Shown: in pieces, positions 11,774 to 36,115 of the stretch
How positions within the stretch are numbered: the first letter of the stretch is position 1
Layout: the number at the start of each line of letters is the position of its first letter
Translations under genes and position numbers: made by a program
From: an uncultured Lachnospiraceae bacterium
Lineage (GTDB): Bacteria; Bacillota; Clostridia; Lachnospirales; Lachnospiraceae
Direction of reading: 5' to 3'
DNA: 64,000 bases
Assembly (NCBI GenBank): GCA_950097145.1
Contig: CATNCF010000007.1
Span: forward strand, 25,572-89,571
The notes under the pieces: model-generated
Told to the model about the DNA's origin: nothing
Databases searched by the model: none
Seen by the model: only the letters and a program-made list of their open reading frames with translations

Positions 11774-11857
11774 TGCAGGAGATGGGACTTGAACCCACAC
11801 GATATTGCTACCACAGGCACCTGAAGCCTGCGCGTCTGCCAATTCCGCCACTCCTGC
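11774..11857 (-). tRNA. tRNA-Leu (anticodon CAG)
   Basis: GCAGGAGTGGCGGAATTGGCAGACGCGCAGGCTTCAGGTGCCTGTGG...GGGTTCAAGTCCCATCTCCTGCA; acceptor and T arms pair; long variable arm; CAG in loop. Confidence 0.95.
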
Positions 11858-19001: not shown

Positions 19002-19085
19002 TGCGGAAGATGGGACTTGAACCCACACGTCTATACAGACACAAGATCCTTAGTCTTGCCTGTCTGCCAATTCCAGCACTTCCGC
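19002..19085 (-). tRNA. tRNA-Leu (anticodon AAG)
   Basis: GCGGAAGTGCTGGAATTGGCAGACAGGCAAGACTAAGGATCTTG...GGGTTCAAGTCCCATCTTCCGCA; loop CTAAGGA gives AAG. Confidence 0.92.
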
Positions 19086-23644: not shown

Positions 23645-24928
23645 TTAAACTTTTTGTAAGAAAAAAGTAAGTATGCATTGTAAAACCTTTTGCAGGATTT
23701 CTTCTGTATGCGCCAAAGACAAAAACACTGCCTCAAACTGGGAGGGCGCCAGATAGATCCCCTGAGCCAGCATATAATTACAGTATTCGGCAAAAGCCTT
23801 TGTGTCAGAAGTTTTCGCGCTGTCATAATCTTCCACCTTCTGTTTGGTAAAATACAGGCACCCCAGCGAACCTGCATGATTCACCTGGCAGGGAAGACCT
23901 TCCTCTTCCACTATTTCTTCCATACGCCCAAAAAACCAGTCACCCTTCTGATTCAGCGCCTGGTAATATTCTTTATGTTCTTTTAGCAGAGTAAGCTGGG
24001 CCATGCCCGCAGCCATTGCAACTGGATTCCCGCTTAATGTTCCTGCCTGATAGACGCCGCCAAGAGGCGCCACCATCTCCATAATTTCCCGCCTGCCGCC
24101 GTAGGCTCCCACAGGCATTCCGCCGCCGATGATTTTCCCCAGTGTGGTGAGATCCGGACAAACGCCATAATACTCCTGGGCGCCGCCGGCTCCTAACCGG
24201 AATCCGGTAATAACTTCATCAAAAATCAGCACTGATCCGTAATCATCACATAACTTCCGCAGCCCGTGCAAAAATCCAGGCGCCGGAGGCACTAAACCCA
24301 TATTGGCTGCAACAGGTTCTACTATCACCGCCGCAATCTCTTCTCCGCACCGCTCAAAATGATACGCTGCGCTTTCTAAGTTATTGTATTCTGCCAATAG
24401 AGTGTCTTTGGTACATCCTGCTGTCACTCCCAGGCTGTCCGGCACGCCTGCGGTCATGACCCCGGAACCTGCCTGTACCAGCAGCCCATCGGAATGTCCA
24501 TGGTAACAGCCTGTAAATTTGATAATTTTATCCCTTCCGGTAAATCCCCTTGCCGCGCGGACAGCGCTCATTACCGCCTCGGTCCCGGAATTGACCATAC
24601 GCACCATTTCGATAGAAGGAACCATTTCACAGACCAGCTTTGCCATATCCACCTCTATAGAAGTTGCTGCTCCAAAACTTAACCCTCTTTGGCATGTTTC
24701 CACGACACGTTCTATCACTGCTTTGTGGCTGTGTCCCAGAATCATAGGTCCCCAGGAACCAACAAAATCAATATAAGCATTGTCATCTTCGTCATACAAA
24801 TATGCTCCTCTTGCACACTTGATAAATCTGGGCGTCCCGCCTATGGACTGGAAGGCGCGCACCGGGGAATTCACCCCGCCTGGGATTACCTGTACTGCCT
24901 CTTGGAATATTTCTTCTGATCTTGTCAT
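23645..24928 (-). CDS. hemL: glutamate-1-semialdehyde 2,1-aminomutase
   Basis: PGGVNSPVRAF, NSGTEAVMSA, FDEVITGFR, LGKIIGGGMPVGAYGG. Confidence 0.98.
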   Translation of the reverse strand: MTRSEEIFQEAVQVIPGGVNSPVRAFQSIGGTPRFIKCARGAYLYDEDDNAYIDFVGSWGPMILGHSHKAVIERVVETCQRGLSFGAATSIEVDMAKLVCEMVPSIEMVRMVNSGTEAVMSAVRAARGFTGRDKIIKFTGCYHGHSDGLLVQAGSGVMTAGVPDSLGVTAGCTKDTLLAEYNNLESAAYHFERCGEEIAAVIVEPVAANMGLVPPAPGFLHGLRKLCDDYGSVLIFDEVITGFRLGAGGAQEYYGVCPDLTTLGKIIGGGMPVGAYGGRREIMEMVAPLGGVYQAGTLSGNPVAMAAGMAQLTLLKEHKEYYQALNQKGDWFFGRMEEIVEEEGLPCQVNHAGSLGCLYFTKQKVEDYDSAKTSDTKAFAEYCNYMLAQGIYLAPSQFEAVFLSLAHTEEILQKVLQCILTFFLQKV

Positions 24929-24956
24929 TTTTCTATGTCTCCCATGTCTTTGAAAT

Positions 24957-25940
24957 CTATCCTATGATCCCCCGTTCTATACATTCTGCCAGTTCTTTTG
25001 CAAAATAACTGATATATAGATCTGTTCCAGCACGATAAGCGCTGACTGCCATCTCACACATAATACTGGACTCATCCACAAATCCTGCCTGCGCCGCAGC
25101 CTTTACCATGGCATATTCCCCGCTGACAGAATAGGATGCTACCGGAATATGAGTTCCATCTTTTATCTCGCGAATCAGATCCCCATAGGTCATGGCGGGT
25201 TTTACCATAATAATATCCGCCCCCTCTTCCACGTCCAGCATGGCTTCTTTCCATGCCTCCCTGCGGTTATGATAATCCATCTGATAAGACTTCCTGTCTC
25301 CAAACGCTGGCGCTGAATCCGCCGCATCCCGGAACGGTCCATAAAAGGAGGAGGCGAATTTCACCGCATAGGACAGAATTGGCGTGTCAACATATCCATA
25401 TTCATCCAATATTCTGCGGATAGCAGCTACCCGTCCATCCATCATGTCCGAAGGCGCCACCATATGTGCGCCTGCCTGTACTTGGGAAAGAGCCGTCTGC
25501 GCCAGAAGTTCCAGTGTCTTGTCATTGTCCACCTCCTGCCCCTTAAGCACTCCGCAGTGTCCGTGGGACGTATACTCGCACATGCACACATCCCCAATCA
25601 GATACATGCCTGGACACGCTTCCCCCGCTTTGCGGAATGCTTTCTGCACAATACCGTCACTGGCATAAGCTCCGCTCCCCTTCTCGTCTTTCTCAGAAGG
25701 AATCCCAAAAATCATCACCGAAGACACCCCTGCATCATACAGTTCTATGAGTTTCTCTTCCATCCGATCCACACTATAACGGTACTGTCCCGGCATGGAA
25801 TGAATTTCCTCTTTCAGATTACTTCCCTCTGCCACAAACATAGGATACACCAGAGAAGACTTATCCATCCTGGTTTCCCGCACCATTTTCCTTAACGCCG
25901 CATTGCCGCGAAGCCGACGCGGCCTATGAATTAGTTCCAT
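24957..25940 (-). CDS. hemB: delta-aminolevulinic acid dehydratase (porphobilinogen synthase)
   Basis: RPRRLRGN, YPMFV, YTSHGHCGVL, APSDMMDGRV, MVKPAMTYGDLI. Confidence 0.98.
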   Translation of the reverse strand: MELIHRPRRLRGNAALRKMVRETRMDKSSLVYPMFVAEGSNLKEEIHSMPGQYRYSVDRMEEKLIELYDAGVSSVMIFGIPSEKDEKGSGAYASDGIVQKAFRKAGEACPGMYLIGDVCMCEYTSHGHCGVLKGQEVDNDKTLELLAQTALSQVQAGAHMVAPSDMMDGRVAAIRRILDEYGYVDTPILSYAVKFASSFYGPFRDAADSAPAFGDRKSYQMDYHNRREAWKEAMLDVEEGADIIMVKPAMTYGDLIREIKDGTHIPVASYSVSGEYAMVKAAAQAGFVDESSIMCEMAVSAYRAGTDLYISYFAKELAECIERGIIG

Positions 25941-27465
25941 ATGTATCTGCCTCCTGCTTTTTCATTTCTGCTATTGACACACAGACATCCACCAGGCTGT
26001 CCAAATCTGCCCGTTTCGATACAAAGGTCTGCATCCCCAGAGCTTTTGCCGCCTGTTCTGTCTGCGCGCCTATACACACTGCCTGCACCAGACTGTAATC
26101 CAGCCCCCCCGCCGACGCGGCAAATCCCTGTACCGTAGAAGCGCTGGTGAATACTGCCATCTGAATCTGTCCATTCTCGAACTCCTGCTTTTCATCTATC
26201 AGTTCACTGGGCTTCTCATACAAGGTCCGGTAAACCGGCAGATCTGTGATTTCCACCGAAACCCGTTTTTCTATTTCTTCTGTCAGCAAAGCATTTCCTT
26301 GTTCTGCCCTTGGTATCAAAAGCCTTTCTCCAGACTGACAAGTTTCTCCCAACAACATTCCCAGATGCTTTCCATCATAAATTTCCGGCATCAAGTCACA
26401 GATCAGCCCCCGGTTTTCCAGTTCTTTTCTGGTTCCGGCCCCAATGGCGGCAATCCGTGCCTTCCCAATGGAACGGATATCCTTTTTTTGCTTTTTAAGT
26501 TCCTGAAAAAATAATCTCGCCCCTGCAGGAGAAGTAAATACCAGATACTGATAATCTGAAAGTCTCTCCATTTCTTCTATAAGCCTGCAGTTATCCTCTA
26601 TCAGCTCTGTGCGGATTGCCGGAAGCTCTAGTACCTCAGCCCCCAGTCTGCGCAGCCTTCCGCTTAAGGTTCCGCTTCTCTCCCTTGGCCTTGTCACCAG
26701 AATTTTCTGCCCGAACAGAGGAAAAGTTTCATACCATTCAAATTCATTTCCCAGAACACAGACTCTGCCTACCATTAAAATTGCCGGTGTATGCACTCCC
26801 TGTTTTTTGACCTGCTGCCTTATATGCGCCAAATCTGTTATGATCTTTTTCTGCCTCGCACTTGTCCCCTGCTGAAGCACTGCCACAGGCATTTTGGGTT
26901 CCATGCCGGCTGCAAGCAATCCCTGGCAGATATCTGGGATCGCTGAAACCCCCATAAGAAATACCAGTGTTCCGTCCAAACGCACCAAAGCTTCAAAATC
27001 AAGATGCAGTTTTTCTCCCGCCTTTTTATGTCCGGTTATCACATGCACAGAAGAAGCAAAGTCCCGGTGAGTCACTGGAATTCCGCCATATGCCGGAACT
27101 GCAAACGCCGAGGTTACTCCCGGCACTACTTCAAAGGGAATTCCATGCTCTTTCAGAAGTGTAAGTTCCTCACCGCCTCTGCCAAAGAGAAAGGGATCTC
27201 CGCCTTTCAAGCGCACCACCCGTTTCCCCTGCTGGGCTTTCTCAAACAGTATCCGATTAATTTCCTCCTGCGGCATCGTATGGGTTCCTGCCCGCTTGCC
27301 CACGTCTATCATTTCTGCCTGTGCAGGGATAAGATTTAAAATCCCTTGTCCCACCAGACGGTCATAAACCACTACCTCCGCCTGTTCTAAAACTTCTCTG
27401 CCTTTTATGGTAAACAGTCCGGGATCTCCTGGACCTGCACCTGTCAGCCATACTTTTCCTTCCAT
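25924..27465 (-). CDS. uroporphyrinogen-III C-methyltransferase / uroporphyrinogen-III synthase fusion
   Basis: CobA half GAGPGDPGL, RLKGGDPFLFGRGGEE, HVITGHK; HemD half with TSPAGARLFF and FTSASTVQGF; RBS supports start 27465. Confidence 0.95.
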   Translation of the reverse strand: MEGKVWLTGAGPGDPGLFTIKGREVLEQAEVVVYDRLVGQGILNLIPAQAEMIDVGKRAGTHTMPQEEINRILFEKAQQGKRVVRLKGGDPFLFGRGGEELTLLKEHGIPFEVVPGVTSAFAVPAYGGIPVTHRDFASSVHVITGHKKAGEKLHLDFEALVRLDGTLVFLMGVSAIPDICQGLLAAGMEPKMPVAVLQQGTSARQKKIITDLAHIRQQVKKQGVHTPAILMVGRVCVLGNEFEWYETFPLFGQKILVTRPRERSGTLSGRLRRLGAEVLELPAIRTELIEDNCRLIEEMERLSDYQYLVFTSPAGARLFFQELKKQKKDIRSIGKARIAAIGAGTRKELENRGLICDLMPEIYDGKHLGMLLGETCQSGERLLIPRAEQGNALLTEEIEKRVSVEITDLPVYRTLYEKPSELIDEKQEFENGQIQMAVFTSASTVQGFAASAGGLDYSLVQAVCIGAQTEQAAKALGMQTFVSKRADLDSLVDVCVSIAEMKKQEADTYGTNS

Positions 27466-27631
27466 TGATATTCCTTCCAATTCTATGAATTTTAGATTGC
27501 TTCCCGCCGCATAGCGCTTTCATATTATGACACATATATTTCCCAAGCTTGAGCCAAGTCCATTTTCTTCTTCTGATTTTTTAACCAAGTAAATCTCCTG
27601 ATATTCTTTGAAATATCCTTTCTGTACTCTT

Positions 27632-27659
27632 ATTATAGCAGTTTTCTCATTGACTGCAA
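27632..27659 (-). promoter_or_regulatory. candidate promoter for cobA/hemD-hemB-hemL
   Basis: TTGCAG - 16 nt - TATAAT on minus strand upstream of cobA/hemD. Confidence 0.45.
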
Positions 27660-27711
27660 ATGTTCTTTTACATTCTTAATTCCTCTGTCTCCTCTTTAGA
27701 AATCACAAAAG

Positions 27712-30435
27712 TCACTTTAAAATCTGTCCCTTCACTGTCTCAGGCATAGAATCTCCAAGAAAATACCTGCCTTTTCTCTGTCCCTGTTCCAGCTCTTCTG
27801 TCATTTCTTTTTCCATCTGCCGGATTTCCTCCTGCAGTTCCCTTGCTGAAACCAAAGCGCATCCCTGCCCCCTGATAATAATCTGCTCAAGTCCGTCAGA
27901 AGTGGCAACTCTAACCTGATATTCCCTGGCATGTTCGTGGGCAAACTTTTCAATATACTGGTCTGCCGTTTCCGCCTCTTTGGTAAACACCACATGAATA
28001 TTATGATAGTCCAGAATTTCTGTCTGGTGCTGCTGCACACGGTAAGCATCAAATACTACAATGAGATTGCATCCCTGGATCCCCTGGTAGTTACACATGA
28101 TATCTAAAAGCCTGTCCCTGGCGCTGTCAATATTCTGTTCTGCCAGCTCTTTCAGCTCCTGCCAGGCAAAAATCATATTATAGCCGTCCACCAGAAAATA
28201 TTTTTCTTTTTTCTCATGCGCCTGAAAGGTACGGGTTACGGAAGATACCTGCTGTCTTTTTTCTGGCTTTTTTCTGTGATAGCCTTTTCTGGCAGATTCC
28301 TTGTCATGCTTATTAGCGTCAAAAGTTCTGGAAAGAATGGCCTTCACTTCATCCTCCCCCATCCATGTTTCCTCTATTTCATCTTCCATCTGCCGGCTTC
28401 TGGCCGTCTGTACATATTCCTGATTTTGAATATCCGAAACTTCTGCCCCTTCCAGAATCCTGCGCACCTGCGGAGGTGTCAGGACATGCATATATTTTTT
28501 TACTTCGTTCCATTTTACCACAAACCCAGCGCCATGGGCGCAAAATACGGAGTCTGGAGAATTTTCGATATCGGACTCCGGCTGGTAATCCTTCTTTTCC
28601 ATCACTTCCTGGGAATTATGGCAGGGTTCATAGCCTTTCAGGCTGCAGAACAATTTTCCGCTTCCTTTCGTATATTGAAGAACCTCCTGCTGGTACGTCT
28701 GCATCTCAGATGCCGGGGCAGTTCCCGTGAGCGCCGCCATTCCTCCCTGTGTCTCCGGCAGTTCAAACACGCCGTGCATCCGTTCAATGTCCGTCATGGC
28801 ACGCCCAATCATCTGCTCAGGAATTTCCAGGCGGAACGCGTAAACTGGTTCTAAAAGTACGGATTCCGCTTCCATCAATCCCTGGCGCAGAGCACGGTAA
28901 ACTGCCTGCCTGAAATCCCCGCCTTCTGTATGTTTCAGGTGGGCGCGCCCTGCTGTCAGGGTAATCTTCATATCTGTAATTGCCACCCCTGTCAGTACAC
29001 CTTTATGCTCTTTTTCTTGTAAATGCGTCAGTACCAAACGCTGCCAATTACGGTCAAGAATATCTTCGCTGCATAGGGTTCCAAACTGCAGGCCGCTTCC
29101 TGGCTCTCCCGGTTCCAACAGTAAATGAACCTCTGCATAATGCCTCAGAGGTTCATAATGCCCCACACCCTCCACTGGCTTTGCAATAGTTTCCTTGTAC
29201 AGAATATTCCCTGCTCCGAAGGACACTTCCGCGCCAAAACGCTCCAGAATCAGGCTTTTTAAAATTTCCAACTGGATCTCTCCCATAACCTGCACGCTTA
29301 TTTCCTGCAAAACTTCATCCCACAGAACATGAAGCTCCGGCTCTTCTTCCTGAAGCCTGCGGAAATTATCCAGCATAATTCCTGTATCGCACCCTTCCGG
29401 CAGAAGTACCTGACAAGTCAGCACAGGGACCAGGACTGGCATTGGGGAATCTTTTTCGATCCCAAGCCCCTCCCCGGAATTTGTGGACTGCAGTCCCGTC
29501 ACTGCACAGACCGTCCCCGCTTCTGCCTCTGGGACGGCCTCAAACTTATCTCCCGAATAAATGCGGATTTGATTAATTTTCTCCTGACCATCCGTGGGGG
29601 AAGCTTTCACTTTCAGGCTTCCTCCTGTCACCTTTAAATGTGTCAGGCGGTTTCCCTGGCTGTCTCTGGTAATTTTAAAGATCTTCGCGCCAAATTCTTC
29701 TGGATAAACGGGCTGAATAGTAAACCTTTCTATGCCTTCCAGAAATTCCAGAACACCGGTACATTTCAGGGCTGAGCCAAAAAAACAGGGAAACATAAAT
29801 CTCCCATGGATCAGTTCTTTCATCTGATCTTCTGTTACAACTCCATGCTGCAGATAATATTCCAGCACATCTTCCCTGCATACTGCTGCATCTTCCTGAA
29901 ACTGCTCTGTGCCAAACTCTGAAAAATCCAGACAATTTTCAGACAGTTTTTCTTTCAGTTCTTCCATTAAAACTTTTTTGTCTGTGTCTGGCTGATCCAT
30001 TTTATTAATAAATAGAAAGACCGGAACTTCGTATTTCTTCAAAAGCTGCCAGAGAGTACGGGTATGCCCCTGAACTCCATCTGAACCGCTGATAACGAGA
30101 ACCGCATAATCCAATACCTGCAGGGTCCGTTCCATTTCCGCTGAAAAATCCACATGTCCCGGAGTATCCAATAAAGTTATGGTGCTATTAGGTAGTTTTA
30201 ATACCGCCTGTTTTGAAAAAATTGTAATTCCCCTGGCCCGTTCACGTTCGTCGGTATCTAAGAAAGCATCCCCGCTGTCCACTCTGCCAAATTTGCGGAT
30301 ATTTCCGCTTGTATACAGTAATGCTTCGGAAAGGGTGGTTTTTCCCGCGTCTACATGGGCCAGCAAGGCAATACTAACATGCTTTCTGGGGGTATCGTCT
30401 AAATTGTCTGCTTTATTTACAGATGTATGTTCCAT
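27712..30435 (-). CDS. TetM/EF-G-like translational GTPase fused to C-terminal YacP/Rae1-type NYN nuclease domain
   Basis: G1 AHVDAGKTTL, RGITIFSKQ, DTPGHVDF, NKMD; C-terminus YFLVDGYNMIFAWQEL...ARDRLLD...VVFDAYRV...VVFTKEAETADQYIE...VATSDGLEQ...SARELQEEI. Confidence 0.93.
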   Translation of the reverse strand: MEHTSVNKADNLDDTPRKHVSIALLAHVDAGKTTLSEALLYTSGNIRKFGRVDSGDAFLDTDERERARGITIFSKQAVLKLPNSTITLLDTPGHVDFSAEMERTLQVLDYAVLVISGSDGVQGHTRTLWQLLKKYEVPVFLFINKMDQPDTDKKVLMEELKEKLSENCLDFSEFGTEQFQEDAAVCREDVLEYYLQHGVVTEDQMKELIHGRFMFPCFFGSALKCTGVLEFLEGIERFTIQPVYPEEFGAKIFKITRDSQGNRLTHLKVTGGSLKVKASPTDGQEKINQIRIYSGDKFEAVPEAEAGTVCAVTGLQSTNSGEGLGIEKDSPMPVLVPVLTCQVLLPEGCDTGIMLDNFRRLQEEEPELHVLWDEVLQEISVQVMGEIQLEILKSLILERFGAEVSFGAGNILYKETIAKPVEGVGHYEPLRHYAEVHLLLEPGEPGSGLQFGTLCSEDILDRNWQRLVLTHLQEKEHKGVLTGVAITDMKITLTAGRAHLKHTEGGDFRQAVYRALRQGLMEAESVLLEPVYAFRLEIPEQMIGRAMTDIERMHGVFELPETQGGMAALTGTAPASEMQTYQQEVLQYTKGSGKLFCSLKGYEPCHNSQEVMEKKDYQPESDIENSPDSVFCAHGAGFVVKWNEVKKYMHVLTPPQVRRILEGAEVSDIQNQEYVQTARSRQMEDEIEETWMGEDEVKAILSRTFDANKHDKESARKGYHRKKPEKRQQVSSVTRTFQAHEKKEKYFLVDGYNMIFAWQELKELAEQNIDSARDRLLDIMCNYQGIQGCNLIVVFDAYRVQQHQTEILDYHNIHVVFTKEAETADQYIEKFAHEHAREYQVRVATSDGLEQIIIRGQGCALVSARELQEEIRQMEKEMTEELEQGQRKGRYFLGDSMPETVKGQILK

Positions 30436-30466
30436 CGGAACTGCTCCTCTCCGTGTTTTTTACGTT

Positions 30467-31333
30467 CTAATGGGGATTCCCGCTTTCAATATGGTTCTCC
30501 AAATCATAAATCACAGCATTTTGTATGCTGTTTAGTATAAAAGGCGAATGAGACGTAATGATAAACTGTATATTCGGAAAAACAGCCGTAAGCAATGGAA
30601 GAATATTTTTTTGTAATTCTAAGTGCAGATGCGTTTCAATCTCATCAATCAGCACAATCCCCGGAAGACTGAAATCAAAGGAACGCTGCGTCTGATACTC
30701 CATCCTCATAATAATATCTAACACAACGTCCAATACTGCTCCATATCCGCTGGACAGGGTATGGAAGTCAAAAGGTTCTTTCCCCTGCTGCAGTATATGA
30801 AATTCAAATTCGTCATCATCAAACTCCAATTTTACTGTTTCATCTGCAAATATTCTTTTCAAAAGCTGCTCCAGTTTCTCAAACCATACTTTTATTTTTT
30901 CTGCCTTTTCAATCTTTTGGCTGTTTCGTGCCAGGGCTTCTGTCACTTTTAAATCTAATAAATATTTTACAAATTCTTTCCGCGGAAATTCAAAAACATT
31001 ATAATAATTCTTTAATTGTACTTTTTCCACATGCTTTGGCTGTTGAGCTTTAAATGTCCTGTCCGCTTTATAACAGGCTGCCAGAAAAGAATGTTTTTGT
31101 TCTATATCTCGGCAATTAAATGTTACGTTTAAACCACTTCCTTCCCCACCTTGACCCATTACTACAATGCCCTGTAAATAATCTGCCAATTCCTCTATGA
31201 CACTGGTCTTCCCGCTCCCATTTTTTCCAGTAAAGATCAAATGTTTCATTTCATTTTCTGACAGGGGGATTGAAATATTCTGTAAATGCCTTACTTTCTT
31301 GATTTCCACATTTGTTATATATACCTGTTCCAT
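30467..31333 (-). CDS. short AAA family ATPase (AAA_15/21-like), probably C-terminally truncated
   Basis: Walker A FTGKNGSGKTS; signature-like TLSSGYGAV; Walker B IVLIDEIETHLH; IITSHSPFIL; ends soon after. Confidence 0.85.
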   Translation of the reverse strand: MEQVYITNVEIKKVRHLQNISIPLSENEMKHLIFTGKNGSGKTSVIEELADYLQGIVVMGQGGEGSGLNVTFNCRDIEQKHSFLAACYKADRTFKAQQPKHVEKVQLKNYYNVFEFPRKEFVKYLLDLKVTEALARNSQKIEKAEKIKVWFEKLEQLLKRIFADETVKLEFDDDEFEFHILQQGKEPFDFHTLSSGYGAVLDVVLDIIMRMEYQTQRSFDFSLPGIVLIDEIETHLHLELQKNILPLLTAVFPNIQFIITSHSPFILNSIQNAVIYDLENHIESGNPH

Positions 31334-31573
31334 CTATCCTCCTTCATAACATCATTGCATATTTTTCAAATTAAATTTGCCTGCAGGAAAAAAATTGCTT
31401 GCACTGCTTAAAGTATACCAGAAAAAAACTGCCCACTCAATCCGAAACCATCAAAAATTATTCTATGCTTGCGCTGCTAGACGAAGCAGGGAAATGGTAC
31501 ATCTACATATAAGATATCAAGTTCAGGCTCTTTTTTATTGAGTATCAGCTTTTCATATGGTATCATTAACTCG

Positions 31574-31579
31574 TATAAT
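31574..31579 (+). promoter_or_regulatory. candidate -10 box of the toxin mRNA
   Basis: TATAAT in CTCGTATAATTG upstream of the 26-aa ORF; weak -35. Confidence 0.4.
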
Positions 31580-31646
31580 TGAAAATAAAGTAGGATGCGA
31601 TTTTTCGATGGATGCCCTCTAGTCTTACGAAAGAAGGTGATGCCCT

Positions 31647-31727
31647 ATGAGTATAATGGAAGTTCTTACATTATTACTTGTTTTATTTGCGGCACTGTCT
31701 TACATAGACAATCATAGAAAGAAATAA
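31647..31727 (+). CDS. putative holin-like type I toxin (26 aa), absent from the ORF track
   Basis: MSIMEVLTLLLVLFAALSYIDNHRKK*: one hydrophobic helix plus basic tail, as in the Firmicutes Hol_Tox family; GAAAGAAGGTG RBS. Confidence 0.75.
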   Translation: MSIMEVLTLLLVLFAALSYIDNHRKK

Positions 31728-31814
31728 GCATCCTCTACCGTCCAAAGTGTAGGATGCTTATTCTAAGTCAATTTTACTACTGAGGGTATCGGAGATTCAA
31801 TTCCGATCGCTTCT
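31708..31814 (-). ncRNA. predicted antisense RNA to the holin-like toxin mRNA 3' end
   Basis: Promoter TTGAAA (31849-31844) - 17 nt - TATAAT (31826-31821); RNA would run through hairpin ATCGGA...TCCGAT and a terminator-like AAGCATCCT...AGGATGCTT stem over the toxin 3' end. Endpoints approximate. Confidence 0.6.
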
Positions 31815-31974
31815 AACTAGATTATACACTAGAGCTGCTTGATTTTCAAGCGGCTCTTTTAATTTATCCCGTAATCAAATGGCAAAACCTGGACTTTTCT
31901 TGTCTGCTATAGTATAATGAGGAAAAATTTGATAAAAAATTATAATAAAAAATAACTACAAGGAGATATATGCC

Positions 31975-32967
31975 ATGCAGTTCCCCAAAAATTTTTTTGA
32001 CGAAGAAATTCGCGATGGTTTTACCGTAATCCCCATGATGAAACGCGCCTGGGCGGCTGAACTTGAGATCTTAGAAGCCGTTCTGAATGTCTGTGACCGC
32101 CATCGCCTGAAATGCTTTGCAGCAGGGGGCACTTTACTGGGCGCCGTGCGCCATCAGGGTTTTATTCCATGGGATGACGATATTGATATGACTCTGCTCC
32201 GGCCGGAATTTGATGAACTGATCCGTTATCTTCCTGATGAACTGCCGGAAGGCATTGTAGTGGCAGGCATGTACGCCGATTCTCCCCGTCTGCAGCAGGC
32301 ATGCAATTCACCTCTGCTTCGTGTAATTGCAGACGAAGAACACTGGAACCTTGCTTCCTATATGACGCGCTTTCACGGCTTTCCTTATTTCCGCATCGGC
32401 ATTGACATTTTCGCTTTGGATTACCTGTCAAAGGATCCGGATTTCTCTGATTTGCAATTTCAGATTTGCTATATGATTATGTTTACTGTGCAAAATTGGG
32501 AACTGTATATCAAAGAAGGTTTATTAGAAACTCAGTTAAAAGAAATTGAAAACGCCTGCCAGTTCAAGCTGAATCGTGACAATGATTTAATTCACCAGTT
32601 ATGGCTGCTGTACGACAGCGTCAGTTCCCAGATAAAACCGCAGGATAGCTGCGGTGAACTGGTAAATCTCTCCTATTCACCGGAAGCCGCCAGGCCAATC
32701 CACGGCCGTCCTGCAGATTTATACGATTCTGTGACCCTGCTTCCCTTTGAACATACGCAGATGCCAGTGCCAAAAGATTATATCCGGGCTGTCACAACCC
32801 TGTTTGGTAAAGACTATATGACCCCTATAAAATTTACATCTGAACATGAATATCCATTTTACAAAAATCAGGAAGCCGCCCTTTTGCAGATGTTTGAGGC
32901 TGACGGCATGACTACCAGCATTGAAGACTTTTGCCACAACTGGCAGATTGCAATGGGCGAAGTGTAA
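31975..32967 (+). CDS. LicD family protein
   Basis: FAAGGTLLGAVRHQGFIPWDDDIDMTLLR nucleotidyltransferase-like motif. Confidence 0.93.
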   Translation: MQFPKNFFDEEIRDGFTVIPMMKRAWAAELEILEAVLNVCDRHRLKCFAAGGTLLGAVRHQGFIPWDDDIDMTLLRPEFDELIRYLPDELPEGIVVAGMYADSPRLQQACNSPLLRVIADEEHWNLASYMTRFHGFPYFRIGIDIFALDYLSKDPDFSDLQFQICYMIMFTVQNWELYIKEGLLETQLKEIENACQFKLNRDNDLIHQLWLLYDSVSSQIKPQDSCGELVNLSYSPEAARPIHGRPADLYDSVTLLPFEHTQMPVPKDYIRAVTTLFGKDYMTPIKFTSEHEYPFYKNQEAALLQMFEADGMTTSIEDFCHNWQIAMGEV

Positions 32968-33826
32968 GCGCAAGATCTCTGCCCAGTTTTTCTGCCTCAT
33001 CTTTGCGGCCGATAATGGAACCAATCTGGTATTCCAGACTGGTTTCTGCGGCATACAGTCCCGTCAGTTTCAACGTCCCACTGTTTTCTATTACCGCATA
33101 AGCTGCCAGCGGGGAACTGCAGCCTCCGTCCAAAGTCCGGATAAAACTGCGCTCTGCCAGCGCGCACCAGGTACTGTCTGCATGAAAAAATCCTTCCAGA
33201 TATCCATATGCTTCACCGCTTCTTCCCTGGACTGCAAGAATTCCCTGGCCTGCCGCAGGCAGCAGTTCTTCTGTGGAAAAATAACGGCTGATACGTTCTT
33301 CAAGCCCAAGACGCTTCAGTCCTGCCGCTGCAAGCACCAGCCCGCTGTACTCCCCCCTGTCCAGTTTTTCCAAACGGGTCAGCACATTGCCCCGGATACT
33401 CTTAATTTCCATCCCAGGAAAAAGCTTCTTCAATTGAATGGTTCTCCTTGCACTGGAACATCCCAGGGGAAGCGCTGGTTGTACTGTAGTAGTACCTTTT
33501 GGCAACACCAACACATCCCTTGCATCCTCTCTTCTGGAATATCCTAACAAAGGCAGGTCTTGCGGTACTTCAGCGGGAACATCCTTCAGGCTGTGAATGG
33601 ACACATCACTGCTCCCTTCCCTCAGCGCCCGGTCAAGTTCCTTTACAAACAGCCCTTTCCCGCCGATCTCATCCAGCTTCCGGTCTAATATTCTGTCGCC
33701 AGTAGTTTTCATGGCCACAAGCTCCGGCTGAAAACCCTGGCAGGATTCACGGATATAATCTGCTAAAAGCTCTGCCTGTAGCACTGCCAGACGGCTCTCT
33801 CTGGTTCCAATCTTTACTGTCCGCAT
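32912..33826 (-). CDS. hemC: porphobilinogen deaminase (hydroxymethylbilane synthase)
   Basis: KIGTRESRLAVLQ, IHSLKDVPAE, GNVLTRLEKLDRGEY, GGCSSPLAAYA; RBS supports start 33826. Confidence 0.97.
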   Translation of the reverse strand: MRTVKIGTRESRLAVLQAELLADYIRESCQGFQPELVAMKTTGDRILDRKLDEIGGKGLFVKELDRALREGSSDVSIHSLKDVPAEVPQDLPLLGYSRREDARDVLVLPKGTTTVQPALPLGCSSARRTIQLKKLFPGMEIKSIRGNVLTRLEKLDRGEYSGLVLAAAGLKRLGLEERISRYFSTEELLPAAGQGILAVQGRSGEAYGYLEGFFHADSTWCALAERSFIRTLDGGCSSPLAAYAVIENSGTLKLTGLYAAETSLEYQIGSIIGRKDEAEKLGRDLALTLRPLQSASCGKSLQCW

Positions 33827-33828
33827 GA

Positions 33829-34296
33829 TTACTCTCCCTCCCAATTCGAAACCTGGTCTCTGATTTTCTCCGTCAATTCTGCCACTTTTCGATGATTCCT
33901 GCCTCCCGCATTCACTCCCACAGTAACTTCTCCTGCCTGGACAATTCCTGGAAAATAAAAATCACATTTTTCCTTATCAGACGCCGTATTTACCGGAATT
34001 TCCTTGTGCCGGCATTCACGGAAAATCGTATCATTCACCTGCTCATCATCCGTGGCCGCCAGAACAAAATCTTCTTCTGATAACTCACTGGGACGGTATT
34101 TGCGGAAATATAAGCTCAGTTTTTCCTGCCGCTCAGCTAATTCTTTTAGCTCTTCTGTAATTTCCGGAGCCACCACATGGACTGCCGCCCCAAACTCCAG
34201 CAGTGACTTCACACGCCGTGTGGCAATTGTTCCCCCGCCAAATACACGAATATTTTTATCGGTGATATTCACAAACAATGGAAAATATTTTATCAT
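33829..34296 (-). CDS. precorrin-2 dehydrogenase / sirohydrochlorin ferrochelatase-like (NAD(P)-binding)
   Basis: FPLFVNITDKNIRVFGGGTIATRRVKSLL, VLAATDDEQVN, CDFYFPGIV. Confidence 0.92.
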   Translation of the reverse strand: MIKYFPLFVNITDKNIRVFGGGTIATRRVKSLLEFGAAVHVVAPEITEELKELAERQEKLSLYFRKYRPSELSEEDFVLAATDDEQVNDTIFRECRHKEIPVNTASDKEKCDFYFPGIVQAGEVTVGVNAGGRNHRKVAELTEKIRDQVSNWEGE

Positions 34297-34802
34297 TCTG
34301 CCACCTCAAATGCCTGCCGGATACTGTCATAATGCAGAAAGATTCCCTGGGCTGCCAGTTCTTCAATCTTGGATTTCTCCGCCAGCATATACCCTGCCGT
34401 CTCTTCTTCCTGCAGCCGAAGGTCGCTCTCTTCAAAATCAAGTACAAACCGATAGACATCTACAAAATAATTATCTCCCTCCCCTGGATTTTCCCGGTGA
34501 TATGTAAAGAGATAGCCATCTTTACAGCCAGACACATCCAGACCCGTTTCCTCTCGTACTTCCCGGACTACTGCGTCCCTGGAATCCTCTCCAGCAACTA
34601 CTGCCCCGCCGGAAACCTCCCACCAGCCGGGGGCCCATGCTTTTGTCATAACCCGTTTTGTAATCAGGAACGTTCCGTCTGGACGCATAATTACTCCCAG
34701 CACCGTAAGATGGTACTCTCCATCCTTTAAACACCAGTCATTCCGTTTCATAGTGCGCCCAGTCCGCTGCTTCCTGCTGTCATAAATGTCCCACATTTCC
34801 AT
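34293..34802 (-). CDS. NUDIX hydrolase
   Basis: GGAVVAGEDSRDAVVREVREETGLDV Nudix box; 4-bp overlap with the sirC-like gene. Confidence 0.95.
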   Translation of the reverse strand: MEMWDIYDSRKQRTGRTMKRNDWCLKDGEYHLTVLGVIMRPDGTFLITKRVMTKAWAPGWWEVSGGAVVAGEDSRDAVVREVREETGLDVSGCKDGYLFTYHRENPGEGDNYFVDVYRFVLDFEESDLRLQEEETAGYMLAEKSKIEELAAQGIFLHYDSIRQAFEVAE

Positions 34803-34864
34803 AACTTCTATTTCCTTTCTTTTTCCTGAACTCTTTGTATTCTGAACCGCTCTTCAAAGAATTG

Positions 34865-36115
34865 TTACCCTTCTTTTCGTTCTCCATATACCTGCTCCAT
34901 AATTTCCACTGTTTTCTGAAGAATTTCCTGCTCCGCCTGATCCCGCAGTTCAAACAACAACTTATCCACCACTTTTCCTGTAGTACATGCCAACTGTTTT
35001 CTCAGCACATCTCTTTCTGCTTCCTGCAGATGAAGCGCCTGGAACGGTTTCTCCATTCTCCACACCAGCTCTTTTGCTGTTTCAACACCAATGCGCTGAA
35101 TCCTTGGCACCAGATCCCGGCATTCCTGCCAGTCCAGAAATTTCTGTATTTCCCCCGCAAGGATATGTTCTGCCTCCTGGCACTGGCTGCACATGCGCTC
35201 AGACTGTGCCTCGATGGGAAGGCTGTCCATATCATAATATACTGCGCCTTTCTTTTGGGCAATGGCTGGTTCCATATCTCTGGGCACCGCAAGATCAAGA
35301 TAAATCTGATTTTTAACAAATGTATCTCCCATACAAGATTCCAGACCCTCTTTTGTAATTGTAAGATTCGGGCTTGCCGTTGCTGAGACAATCAGGCTGC
35401 ATTGAGGAATATAATGGTAACGTTCTCCGTAATCAATTCTTTTCGCCCCTTTTGGAATTTTCACCATTCCGCTCCGGTACTGCCGGACGGTAACCGTCAC
35501 ATCCGCTCCCTCTTCCATCAGCGCCTGGGCCGTAAGTTTTCCCATTTCTCCATTCCCAATCACAAGGCAGATCTTTCCTGCCAAATCATTTCCCTGATCC
35601 TTCAAAAATTCCAGGGCACGGTGGGCTGCTGAAAAATTGGCCTTGTCCATTACCACATTTGTTTTCACCTGTTTCCCTGCGGTCACTGCCATGCGAAACA
35701 GAACTTCCAGGAGACGATCCGTACATTCCTGCTCTCTGGCAAATGCAAGCGCCTCTTTCACCTGGGTCAAAATCTGATCTTCACCCATAATCTGTGAACG
35801 CATTCCTGCGCTTAAACGAAACAAGTGCTCCACAGCCTCCCGGTTTTCACGCACCACCAGATACTCTTGGTAGTCCATAACAGAAAGCCCTTTCAGGCTG
35901 CAAAGAACATCTGGAAGCTCCAGCTTTGCATGGTCTGTCAAGCTGAGCCAAAGTTCCATCCGGTTGCAGGTAGAAAGCAGCACACAGCCCCGGATCTCAG
36001 GATTCTGCCTCATTTGAGCCATTGCCAGTTCCATAGACTTTTTGGTAAAAGAAAAACACTGCCTGATATCGATATCTGCTCTGGTATAATCTATCCCAGT
36101 CATCTTTAAATTCAT
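34865..36115 (-). CDS. hemA: glutamyl-tRNA reductase
   Basis: LLSTCNRMELWL, GEDQILTQVKEA, VIGNGEMGKL, YLDLAVPRDMEP. Confidence 0.95.
   Translation of the reverse strand: MNLKMTGIDYTRADIDIRQCFSFTKKSMELAMAQMRQNPEIRGCVLLSTCNRMELWLSLTDHAKLELPDVLCSLKGLSVMDYQEYLVVRENREAVEHLFRLSAGMRSQIMGEDQILTQVKEALAFAREQECTDRLLEVLFRMAVTAGKQVKTNVVMDKANFSAAHRALEFLKDQGNDLAGKICLVIGNGEMGKLTAQALMEEGADVTVTVRQYRSGMVKIPKGAKRIDYGERYHYIPQCSLIVSATASPNLTITKEGLESCMGDTFVKNQIYLDLAVPRDMEPAIAQKKGAVYYDMDSLPIEAQSERMCSQCQEAEHILAGEIQKFLDWQECRDLVPRIQRIGVETAKELVWRMEKPFQALHLQEAERDVLRKQLACTTGKVVDKLLFELRDQAEQEILQKTVEIMEQVYGERKEG

What the first reader, a model, noticed from the sequence alone, without database searches (positions are those of the whole stretch)
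27712..30435. TetM-like ribosomal GTPase fused to a Rae1/YacP-type NYN nuclease
The N-terminal ~730 aa resemble ribosome protection / EF-G family GTPases. The C-terminal ~165 aa match YacP/Rae1 (VDGYNMI, VVFDAY, ETADQYIE, VATSDGLEQ, SARELQ). Rae1 of B. subtilis cleaves mRNA in the ribosomal A site. One polypeptide could clear or remodel the A site and cut the mRNA there: a possible ribosome rescue, antibiotic-response or phage-abortive factor.
Basis: partly seen in the sequence, partly recalled or inferred. Interest (0 to 1): 0.8.

Follow-up and report, generated by a model that had tools for sequence, protein, structure and literature searches.

The report
Translation GTPase fused to Rae1-type RNase
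A single protein joins an EF-G-like ribosome motor to an enzyme that cuts messenger RNA inside the ribosome; the fusion was noted once in 2015 as an add-on to tetracycline-resistance proteins, but it looks instead like a widespread, conserved and untested ribosome-surveillance factor of gut Clostridia that databases often mislabel as a resistance gene.

Summary
One intact 907-aa ORF on the minus strand (30435 to 27712) holds a complete five-domain EF-G/Tet-type translational GTPase (res 18-608), a private C-terminal extension (601-655), a variable linker (656-745) and a full YacP/Rae1 NYN nuclease domain (746-907). [quoted passage not shown] New here: (i) it is near-universal in the window's bacterial family (NYN in 270 of 298 genomes, mostly as a ~900-aa fusion, usually the only copy) and present in many other Clostridia families; (ii) the GTPase is not a TetM-class resistance protein (own clade, different domain IV tip, far below NCBI's Tet cut-off); (iii) the fusion probably arose once, and where unfused in this family the two genes are kept or lost together; (iv) both active sites are invariant and under purifying selection. 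Best reading: a ribosome-surveillance factor whose EF-G-like part binds stalled ribosomes with an open A site and whose tethered Rae1-type domain then cuts the A-site mRNA. No step of this mechanism is shown experimentally. Tetracycline resistance and phage defence are not supported.

The parts
27712..30435 (-). Whole fusion ORF, 907 aa plus stop (start ATG at 30435)
29725..30384 (-). GTPase (G) domain, res 18-237; invariant AHVDAGKTT, RGIT, DTPGH (catalytic His94), NKxD
   Evidence: Pfam GTP_EFTU; motifs invariant or nearly so
29470..29691 (-). Domain II (EF-G_D2), res 249-322
29215..29427 (-). Domain III (EFG_III), res 337-407
28867..29208 (-). Domain IV (EFG_IV), res 410-523
28909..28941 (-). 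Domain IV loop III tip, res 499-509, HLKHTEGGDFR: family-specific, near invariant in fused and unfused members; differs from TetM YYSPVSTPADFR and from EF-G HEVDSSEMAF
28612..28860 (-). Domain V (EFG_C), res 526-608
28471..28635 (-). Family-specific C-terminal extension, res 601-655 (GYxxC...YDxxxD...SVFCxxGxGFxVxW..V..YMH); also present, at the very C-terminus, in unfused orthologues; absent from TetM and EF-G
28201..28470 (-). Linker, res 656-745; 62-99 aa across 35 fused proteins, low model confidence, fastest evolving part; many members share a short helical motif E-E-L-x-x-I-F-x-R-T-Y-G (window about res 693-707)
27715..28200 (-). YacP/Rae1-type NYN nuclease domain, res 746-907; acidic residues D750, D796, D825, D847 invariant
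   Evidence: Pfam NYN_YacP 1.7e-52; PDB 5mq8/5mq9; conservation

Best explanation
It is a ribosome-surveillance / A-site mRNA-cleavage factor: a Clostridia-type EF-G-family GTPase carrying the lineage's Rae1 endoribonuclease on a flexible tether. Proposed steps (all inferred): (1) the GTP-bound factor enters the EF-G site of a ribosome with a vacant A site (paused or stalled) and its family-specific domain IV tip occupies or probes the decoding centre; (2) GTP hydrolysis withdraws domain IV, since domain IV and the NYN domain cannot both sit in the A site; (3) the tethered NYN domain enters the vacated A site and cuts the mRNA; (4) the truncated complex goes to tmRNA-type rescue and the fragments decay. 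Shown here by sequence: the fusion, intact active-site residues in both enzymes, purifying selection on both, a probable single origin from a GTPase and an ancestral rlmB-linked rae1 gene, and joint retention or loss in the window's family. Not shown: ribosome binding, GTPase activity, RNase activity, targets.
For: Complete EF-G domain set and an EF-G-like predicted fold (inter-domain arrangement not matched, TM-scores about 0.4-0.5 over the whole query). Full NYN_YacP domain at 178 bits, clear match to B. subtilis YacP/Rae1 structures. Rae1 is described in the literature as a translation-dependent endoribonuclease that attacks mRNA in the ribosomal A site (PMC12320835; PMC6613710; PMC10100781). 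Four NYN acids and the G-domain motifs invariant in 35 of 35 aligned fused proteins. NG86 between window and same-genus copy: dN/dS 0.08 (GTPase), 0.03 (NYN), 0.20 (linker). Rosetta-stone pattern in the window's family: 267 genomes both modules, 3 NYN only, 0 GTPase only, 28 neither; among unfused genomes 9/0/3/28, Fisher p = 8e-7, not corrected for phylogeny. GTPase tree: all 40 fused sequences on one side of one branch, SH-aLRT 96. NYN tree: fused NYNs with same-order standalone NYNs in one clade, 100/99. Low-confidence 62-99-aa linker fits a tether.
Against: No experiment. Domain IV and Rae1 are both expected in the A site, so simultaneous action is sterically unlikely and a sequential model is an assumption. 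Outside the window's family the GTPase also occurs without any NYN gene (e.g. G321, G350, G324, G470, G575), so the GTPase must be able to work alone; and many genomes have Rae1 without this GTPase. No conserved gene neighbourhood for either fused or unfused GTPase. One genome (G572) has the fusion plus an ancestral rae1.
Confidence: 0.5

Rival explanations
1. Alternative elongation factor: the GTPase is a condition-specific EF-G paralogue (like Bacteroides EF-G2, used in carbon limitation) and the NYN domain is an accessory that trims or monitors the mRNA being translated, or is fused mainly for co-expression.
For: EF-G fold and intact GTPase motifs; the GTPase exists alone in some genomes; precedent of a non-essential EF-G paralogue used during carbon limitation (PMC10294740), whose ribosome-bound structure appears in the fold search as 8dmf, an entry the sequence search lists under the molecule name TetQ.
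Against: Invariant NYN acids and strong purifying selection on the NYN part argue against a passive appendage; joint loss in the window's family suggests one function.
Confidence: 0.2
2. rRNA/tRNA or ribosome-assembly enzyme: the GTPase brings the NYN nuclease to (pre-)ribosomes to mature or destroy rRNA or tRNA, as earlier proposed for NYN domains.
For: Earlier proposal for YacP-like NYN domains quoted in PMC4342817; standalone rae1 sits next to a putative 23S methyltransferase gene rlmB in Clostridia, and rlmB(yacO)/rae1 mutants act in one pathway in B. subtilis (PMC6613710).
Against: The published activity of Rae1 itself is translation-dependent mRNA cleavage.
Confidence: 0.15
3. Tetracycline ribosome-protection protein that gained an RNase (the 2015 reading): it displaces tetracycline and/or cleaves RNA on drug-stalled ribosomes.
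For: Distant homology to TetM/TetO (29-31% identity); Atkinson's classification as Tet; several NCBI records so labelled.
Against: Separate clade from TetM (100 support, branch 1.29); no YSPVS loop III (0 of 80 named members), no PPNPFW loop I, different C-terminal extension; loop III is described as key for drug displacement, though single and triple S508/P509/V510 alanine mutants can be active (PMC4750697), so sequence alone is not decisive; 392 bits versus cut-off 775; core gene rather than sporadic; the same genus also carries a separate TetM-type gene (G147).
Confidence: 0.08
4. Anti-phage or abortive-infection effector.
For: Only the general idea of an RNase on the ribosome.
Against: No PADLOC family matched; near-universal, single copy, no fixed gene context; the two 'phage' records carrying it are chromosomal (AddAB, FeoB and a class I tRNA synthetase as neighbours).
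Confidence: 0.03

Closest known systems
Tet proteins with YacP-like NYN domain in ten Clostridiales species (Atkinson 2015, BMC Genomics, PMC4342817)
   Same: Same architecture, same lineage; almost certainly the same family.
   Different: There read as a resistance protein that acquired a domain; here a separate GTPase subfamily, near-universal in one family and widespread in Clostridia, with unfused relatives.
Rae1/YacP endoribonuclease (B. subtilis; PDB 5mq8/5mq9)
   Same: Complete NYN domain, same acidic quartet; standalone clostridial copies lie at the rlmB-rae1-sigH locus.
   Different: Here fused to a translational GTPase and moved away from that locus; no ribosome or RNase test.
TetM/TetO ribosome protection proteins (PDB 3j9y, 4v6v)
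   Same: Domain order G-II-III-IV-V, about 30% identity, GTPase motifs.
   Different: Domain IV loops I and III, C-terminal extension and clade differ; below NCBI's Tet cut-off; fused nuclease.
EF-G and EF-G paralogues (e.g. Bacteroides EF-G2, 8dmf)
   Same: Fold and GTPase motifs.
   Different: Tip of domain IV, C-terminal extension, nuclease.
Eukaryotic no-go decay (Hbs1/Dom34 GTPase complex with the endonuclease Cue2), from own knowledge
   Same: Functional analogy only: a translational GTPase and an mRNA endonuclease acting on stalled ribosomes.
   Different: Different protein families, separate polypeptides; no homology claimed.

Membership tests
YacP/Rae1 NYN nuclease | NYN_YacP domain above gathering score | tested here: met
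   178.2 bits vs 24.6
YacP/Rae1 NYN nuclease | Four conserved acidic residues of the active site | tested here: met
   D750, D796, D825, D847; invariant in 35 fused and in 24 fused plus standalone
YacP/Rae1 NYN nuclease | Translation-dependent mRNA cleavage in the ribosomal A site | not testable with these tools
   needs biochemistry
EF-G superfamily translational GTPase | Domains G, II, III, IV, V with G1-G4 motifs and catalytic His | tested here: met
   fold search
TetM-class tetracycline ribosome protection protein | Score above the curated NCBIfam cut-off | tested here: not met
   tet_protect 392 vs 775; tet_protect_M_W 272 vs 1100
TetM-class tetracycline ribosome protection protein | Domain IV loop III YSPVS-type motif | tested here: not met
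   HLKHTEGGDFR instead; 0 of 80 named members have YSPVS
TetM-class tetracycline ribosome protection protein | Falls in the TetM clade | tested here: not met
   66-row family separated with 100 support
TetM-class tetracycline ribosome protection protein | Raises tetracycline MIC | not testable with these tools
   needs an experiment
Anti-phage defence system | Match to a known defence family | tested here: not met
   no PADLOC match

The most novel reading that the evidence does not exclude
A core clostridial ribosome-surveillance machine in which a dedicated translational GTPase gates a tethered A-site mRNA endonuclease in one polypeptide: a bacterial counterpart of GTPase-plus-endonuclease no-go decay, currently mis-annotated as tetracycline resistance in many gut genomes.
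Probability: 0.4. Interest if true: 0.8.

Novelty: new variant of a known kind. Interest (0 to 1): 0.5.

Why it matters
How Rae1 is recruited to paused ribosomes is, as far as I know, unclear (its targets and codon preference are only partly defined). A lineage that has hard-wired Rae1 to an EF-G-like GTPase, and keeps or loses the two together where they are unfused, suggests that a GTPase partner is part of the mechanism and makes that testable. It also matters for resistance surveillance: some members are labelled 'tetracycline resistance ribosomal protection protein' in NCBI records, which would overcount resistance genes in gut commensals.

Tried and rejected
Gene neighbourhood as a clue: none conserved among 35 fused or 20 unfused GTPase loci. 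Phage origin: rejected, the two phage-collection records are chromosomal. Defence: no PADLOC match. RNA leader: no Rfam family at the locus, only two tRNAs in the window. First NYN tree contained a wrongly cut sequence (L097) and two very long branches; redone without them. Structure matches only restate the EF-G fold and do not fix the arrangement of NYN relative to the GTPase. The papers on Rae1 itself (Leroy 2017, Condon 2018, Deves 2023, Gilet 2025) and Li 2013 on Tet(O) are not held in the library, so I cannot say whether Condon 2018, on Rae1 distribution, already mentions the fusion.

Full report
What is there. The window encodes on its minus strand one uninterrupted 907-aa ORF (30435 to 27712). 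Pfam finds every EF-G domain in order and a full NYN_YacP domain at the C-terminus. The best solved relatives are TetM (18-604) and B. subtilis YacP (747-881).

Prior art. [quoted passage not shown] Nothing else on the fusion was found in the held library; Condon 2018 on the distribution of Rae1 is not held.

Distribution. In 298 genomes of the window's bacterial family, 270 have an NYN_YacP domain, nearly always one copy; of the roughly 155 places listed, all but 14 lie in frames of about 850-1050 aa. The window's own genome (82.8% complete) has no second copy. In a class-wide sample 192 of 293 genomes have NYN_YacP, a mix of ~880-aa fusions and ~175-aa standalone proteins; the GTPase is in 125 of 293 and in 23 of 300 in a phylum-wide sample; a few of the weakest of these matches (35-37% identity, E near 1e-90) are more distant Tet-like proteins rather than orthologues. 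Named carriers include Hungatella hathewayi, Anaerostipes butyraticus, Dorea phocaeensis, Anaerovorax odorimutans, Desulfosporosinus acididurans, Fusibacter sp. and Clostridium punense; at least 74 of 80 named loci show the fusion, and the others are mostly contig ends or divergent NYN domains. It is therefore a widespread clostridial gene, not a sporadic resistance determinant. Some copies are on plasmids (Monoglobus, Agathobacter rectalis) and an unfused relative is on Ligilactobacillus salivarius megaplasmids; sequences from other families also nest among those of the window's family in both trees, so horizontal spread has probably happened too.

It is not a TetM-class protein. NCBI's tet_protect model gives 392 bits against a cut-off of 775. 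In an ML tree the family (40 fused, 26 unfused) is separated from TetM-type proteins and EF-G with 100 support. Domain IV loop III reads H-x-KHTEGGDFR where TetM has YYSPVSTPADFR, loop I lacks PPNPFW, and the TetM C-terminal helix is replaced by a conserved extension ending SVFCxxGxGFxVxW..V..YMH, which is also the C-terminus of the unfused orthologues. A review places TetM Pro509 directly in the drug site (PMC8161019), but alanine substitutions in loop III can be tolerated (PMC4750697), so the motif argument is strong but not absolute. Same-genus genome G147 carries the fusion and, separately, a TetM-type gene.

Both halves look active. The G-domain motifs with the catalytic His, and NYN acids D750, D796, D825 and D847, are invariant in 35 fused proteins. 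Among 74 named fused proteins 71 match a strict catalytic pattern; two of the other three keep the acids with a neighbouring substitution and one is truncated. Between the window and its same-genus relative dN/dS is 0.08 (GTPase), 0.03 (NYN) and 0.20 (linker); synonymous sites are near saturation, so these are rough. The AlphaFold model (mean pLDDT 80) has confident GTPase and NYN domains and a low-confidence linker; Foldseek returns EF-G structures. The linker is 62-99 aa long and in many members contains a short helix EELxxIFxRTYG of unknown role.

Origin and linkage. All fused GTPases lie on one side of one branch (SH-aLRT 96), next to unfused orthologues. Fused NYN domains plus six standalone NYNs of the same order form one clade (100/99) apart from other clostridial Rae1; fused NYNs alone are not strictly monophyletic there, and G490 may be an exception, so a single fusion is likely but not proven. 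Standalone clostridial rae1 mostly sits at cysS-mrnC-rlmB-rae1-sigH (gene names given from cluster order and own knowledge, not separately annotated), whereas the fused gene has no fixed neighbourhood. In the window's family, genomes with a standalone NYN nearly always have a separate GTPase orthologue elsewhere, and genomes without NYN lack the GTPase as well: 267 both, 3 NYN only, 0 GTPase only, 28 neither (Fisher p = 8e-7 on the unfused subset, no phylogenetic correction). Outside the family the link is looser: some genomes have the GTPase without NYN (G321, G350, G324, G470, G575) and many have Rae1 without the GTPase.

Mechanism. Rae1 is described as a translation-dependent endoribonuclease attacking mRNA in the ribosomal A site, and Tet/EF-G proteins bind over the same site. 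One molecule cannot place both there at once, so I propose sequential action: GTPase binding and probing of an open A site, withdrawal on GTP hydrolysis, then cleavage by the tethered nuclease and hand-over to rescue. Every step is inference. The main rival is an alternative elongation factor with an accessory nuclease, for which Bacteroides EF-G2 is a precedent.

Verdict. Observation confirmed; interpretation partly supported. The architecture is known but neglected; what is new is that it is widespread, of probable single origin, apparently functionally intact and outside the Tet class. Interest 0.5.

Noticed in passing
window 23645-36115: A haem/sirohaem biosynthesis gene cluster on the minus strand, named here from the translations only (hemA-like 34865-36115, precorrin-2 dehydrogenase-like 33829-34296, hemC-like 32912-33844, cobA-hemD-like fusion 25924-27480, hemB-like 24957-25940, hemL-like 23645-24928), is interrupted by the GTPase-NYN gene, an AAA-type ATPase (30467-31333, minus) and a LicD-like gene (31975-32967, plus).
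   Followed up: no
window ~28315-28359 (res ~693-707): Short conserved helical motif E-E-L-x-x-I-F-x-R-T-Y-G inside the otherwise variable linker of many fused proteins; possible docking motif, function unknown.
   Followed up: partly
window 28471-28635 (res 601-655): Two invariant cysteines (C605, C632) in the family-specific C-terminal extension, often with nearby histidines; metal site, structural role or neither is untested.
   Followed up: partly
L260 4983-6917 (L. salivarius UCC118 pMP118, LSL_RS10690) and L261 5980-8781 (A. rectalis plasmid): Family members annotated by NCBI as TetM/TetW/TetO/TetS family tetracycline resistance proteins; probable over-annotation. The L. salivarius copy is unfused and lies beside an rpsN gene on a megaplasmid.
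   Followed up: partly
L258, L259 (MT835563.1, MT835514.1): Records deposited as unverified phage scaffolds carry the fusion together with chromosomal genes (AddAB, FeoB, a class I tRNA synthetase in L259; NAD(P)H-hydrate dehydratase and an aminotransferase in L258); they look like host DNA.
   Followed up: yes
L088 and L089 (genome G572): One genome carries both the fusion and an unfused ancestral rae1 next to a putative rlmB and sigH.
   Followed up: partly
window 11774-11857 and 19002-19085, minus strand: Two tRNA genes, the only Rfam matches in the window.
   Followed up: no
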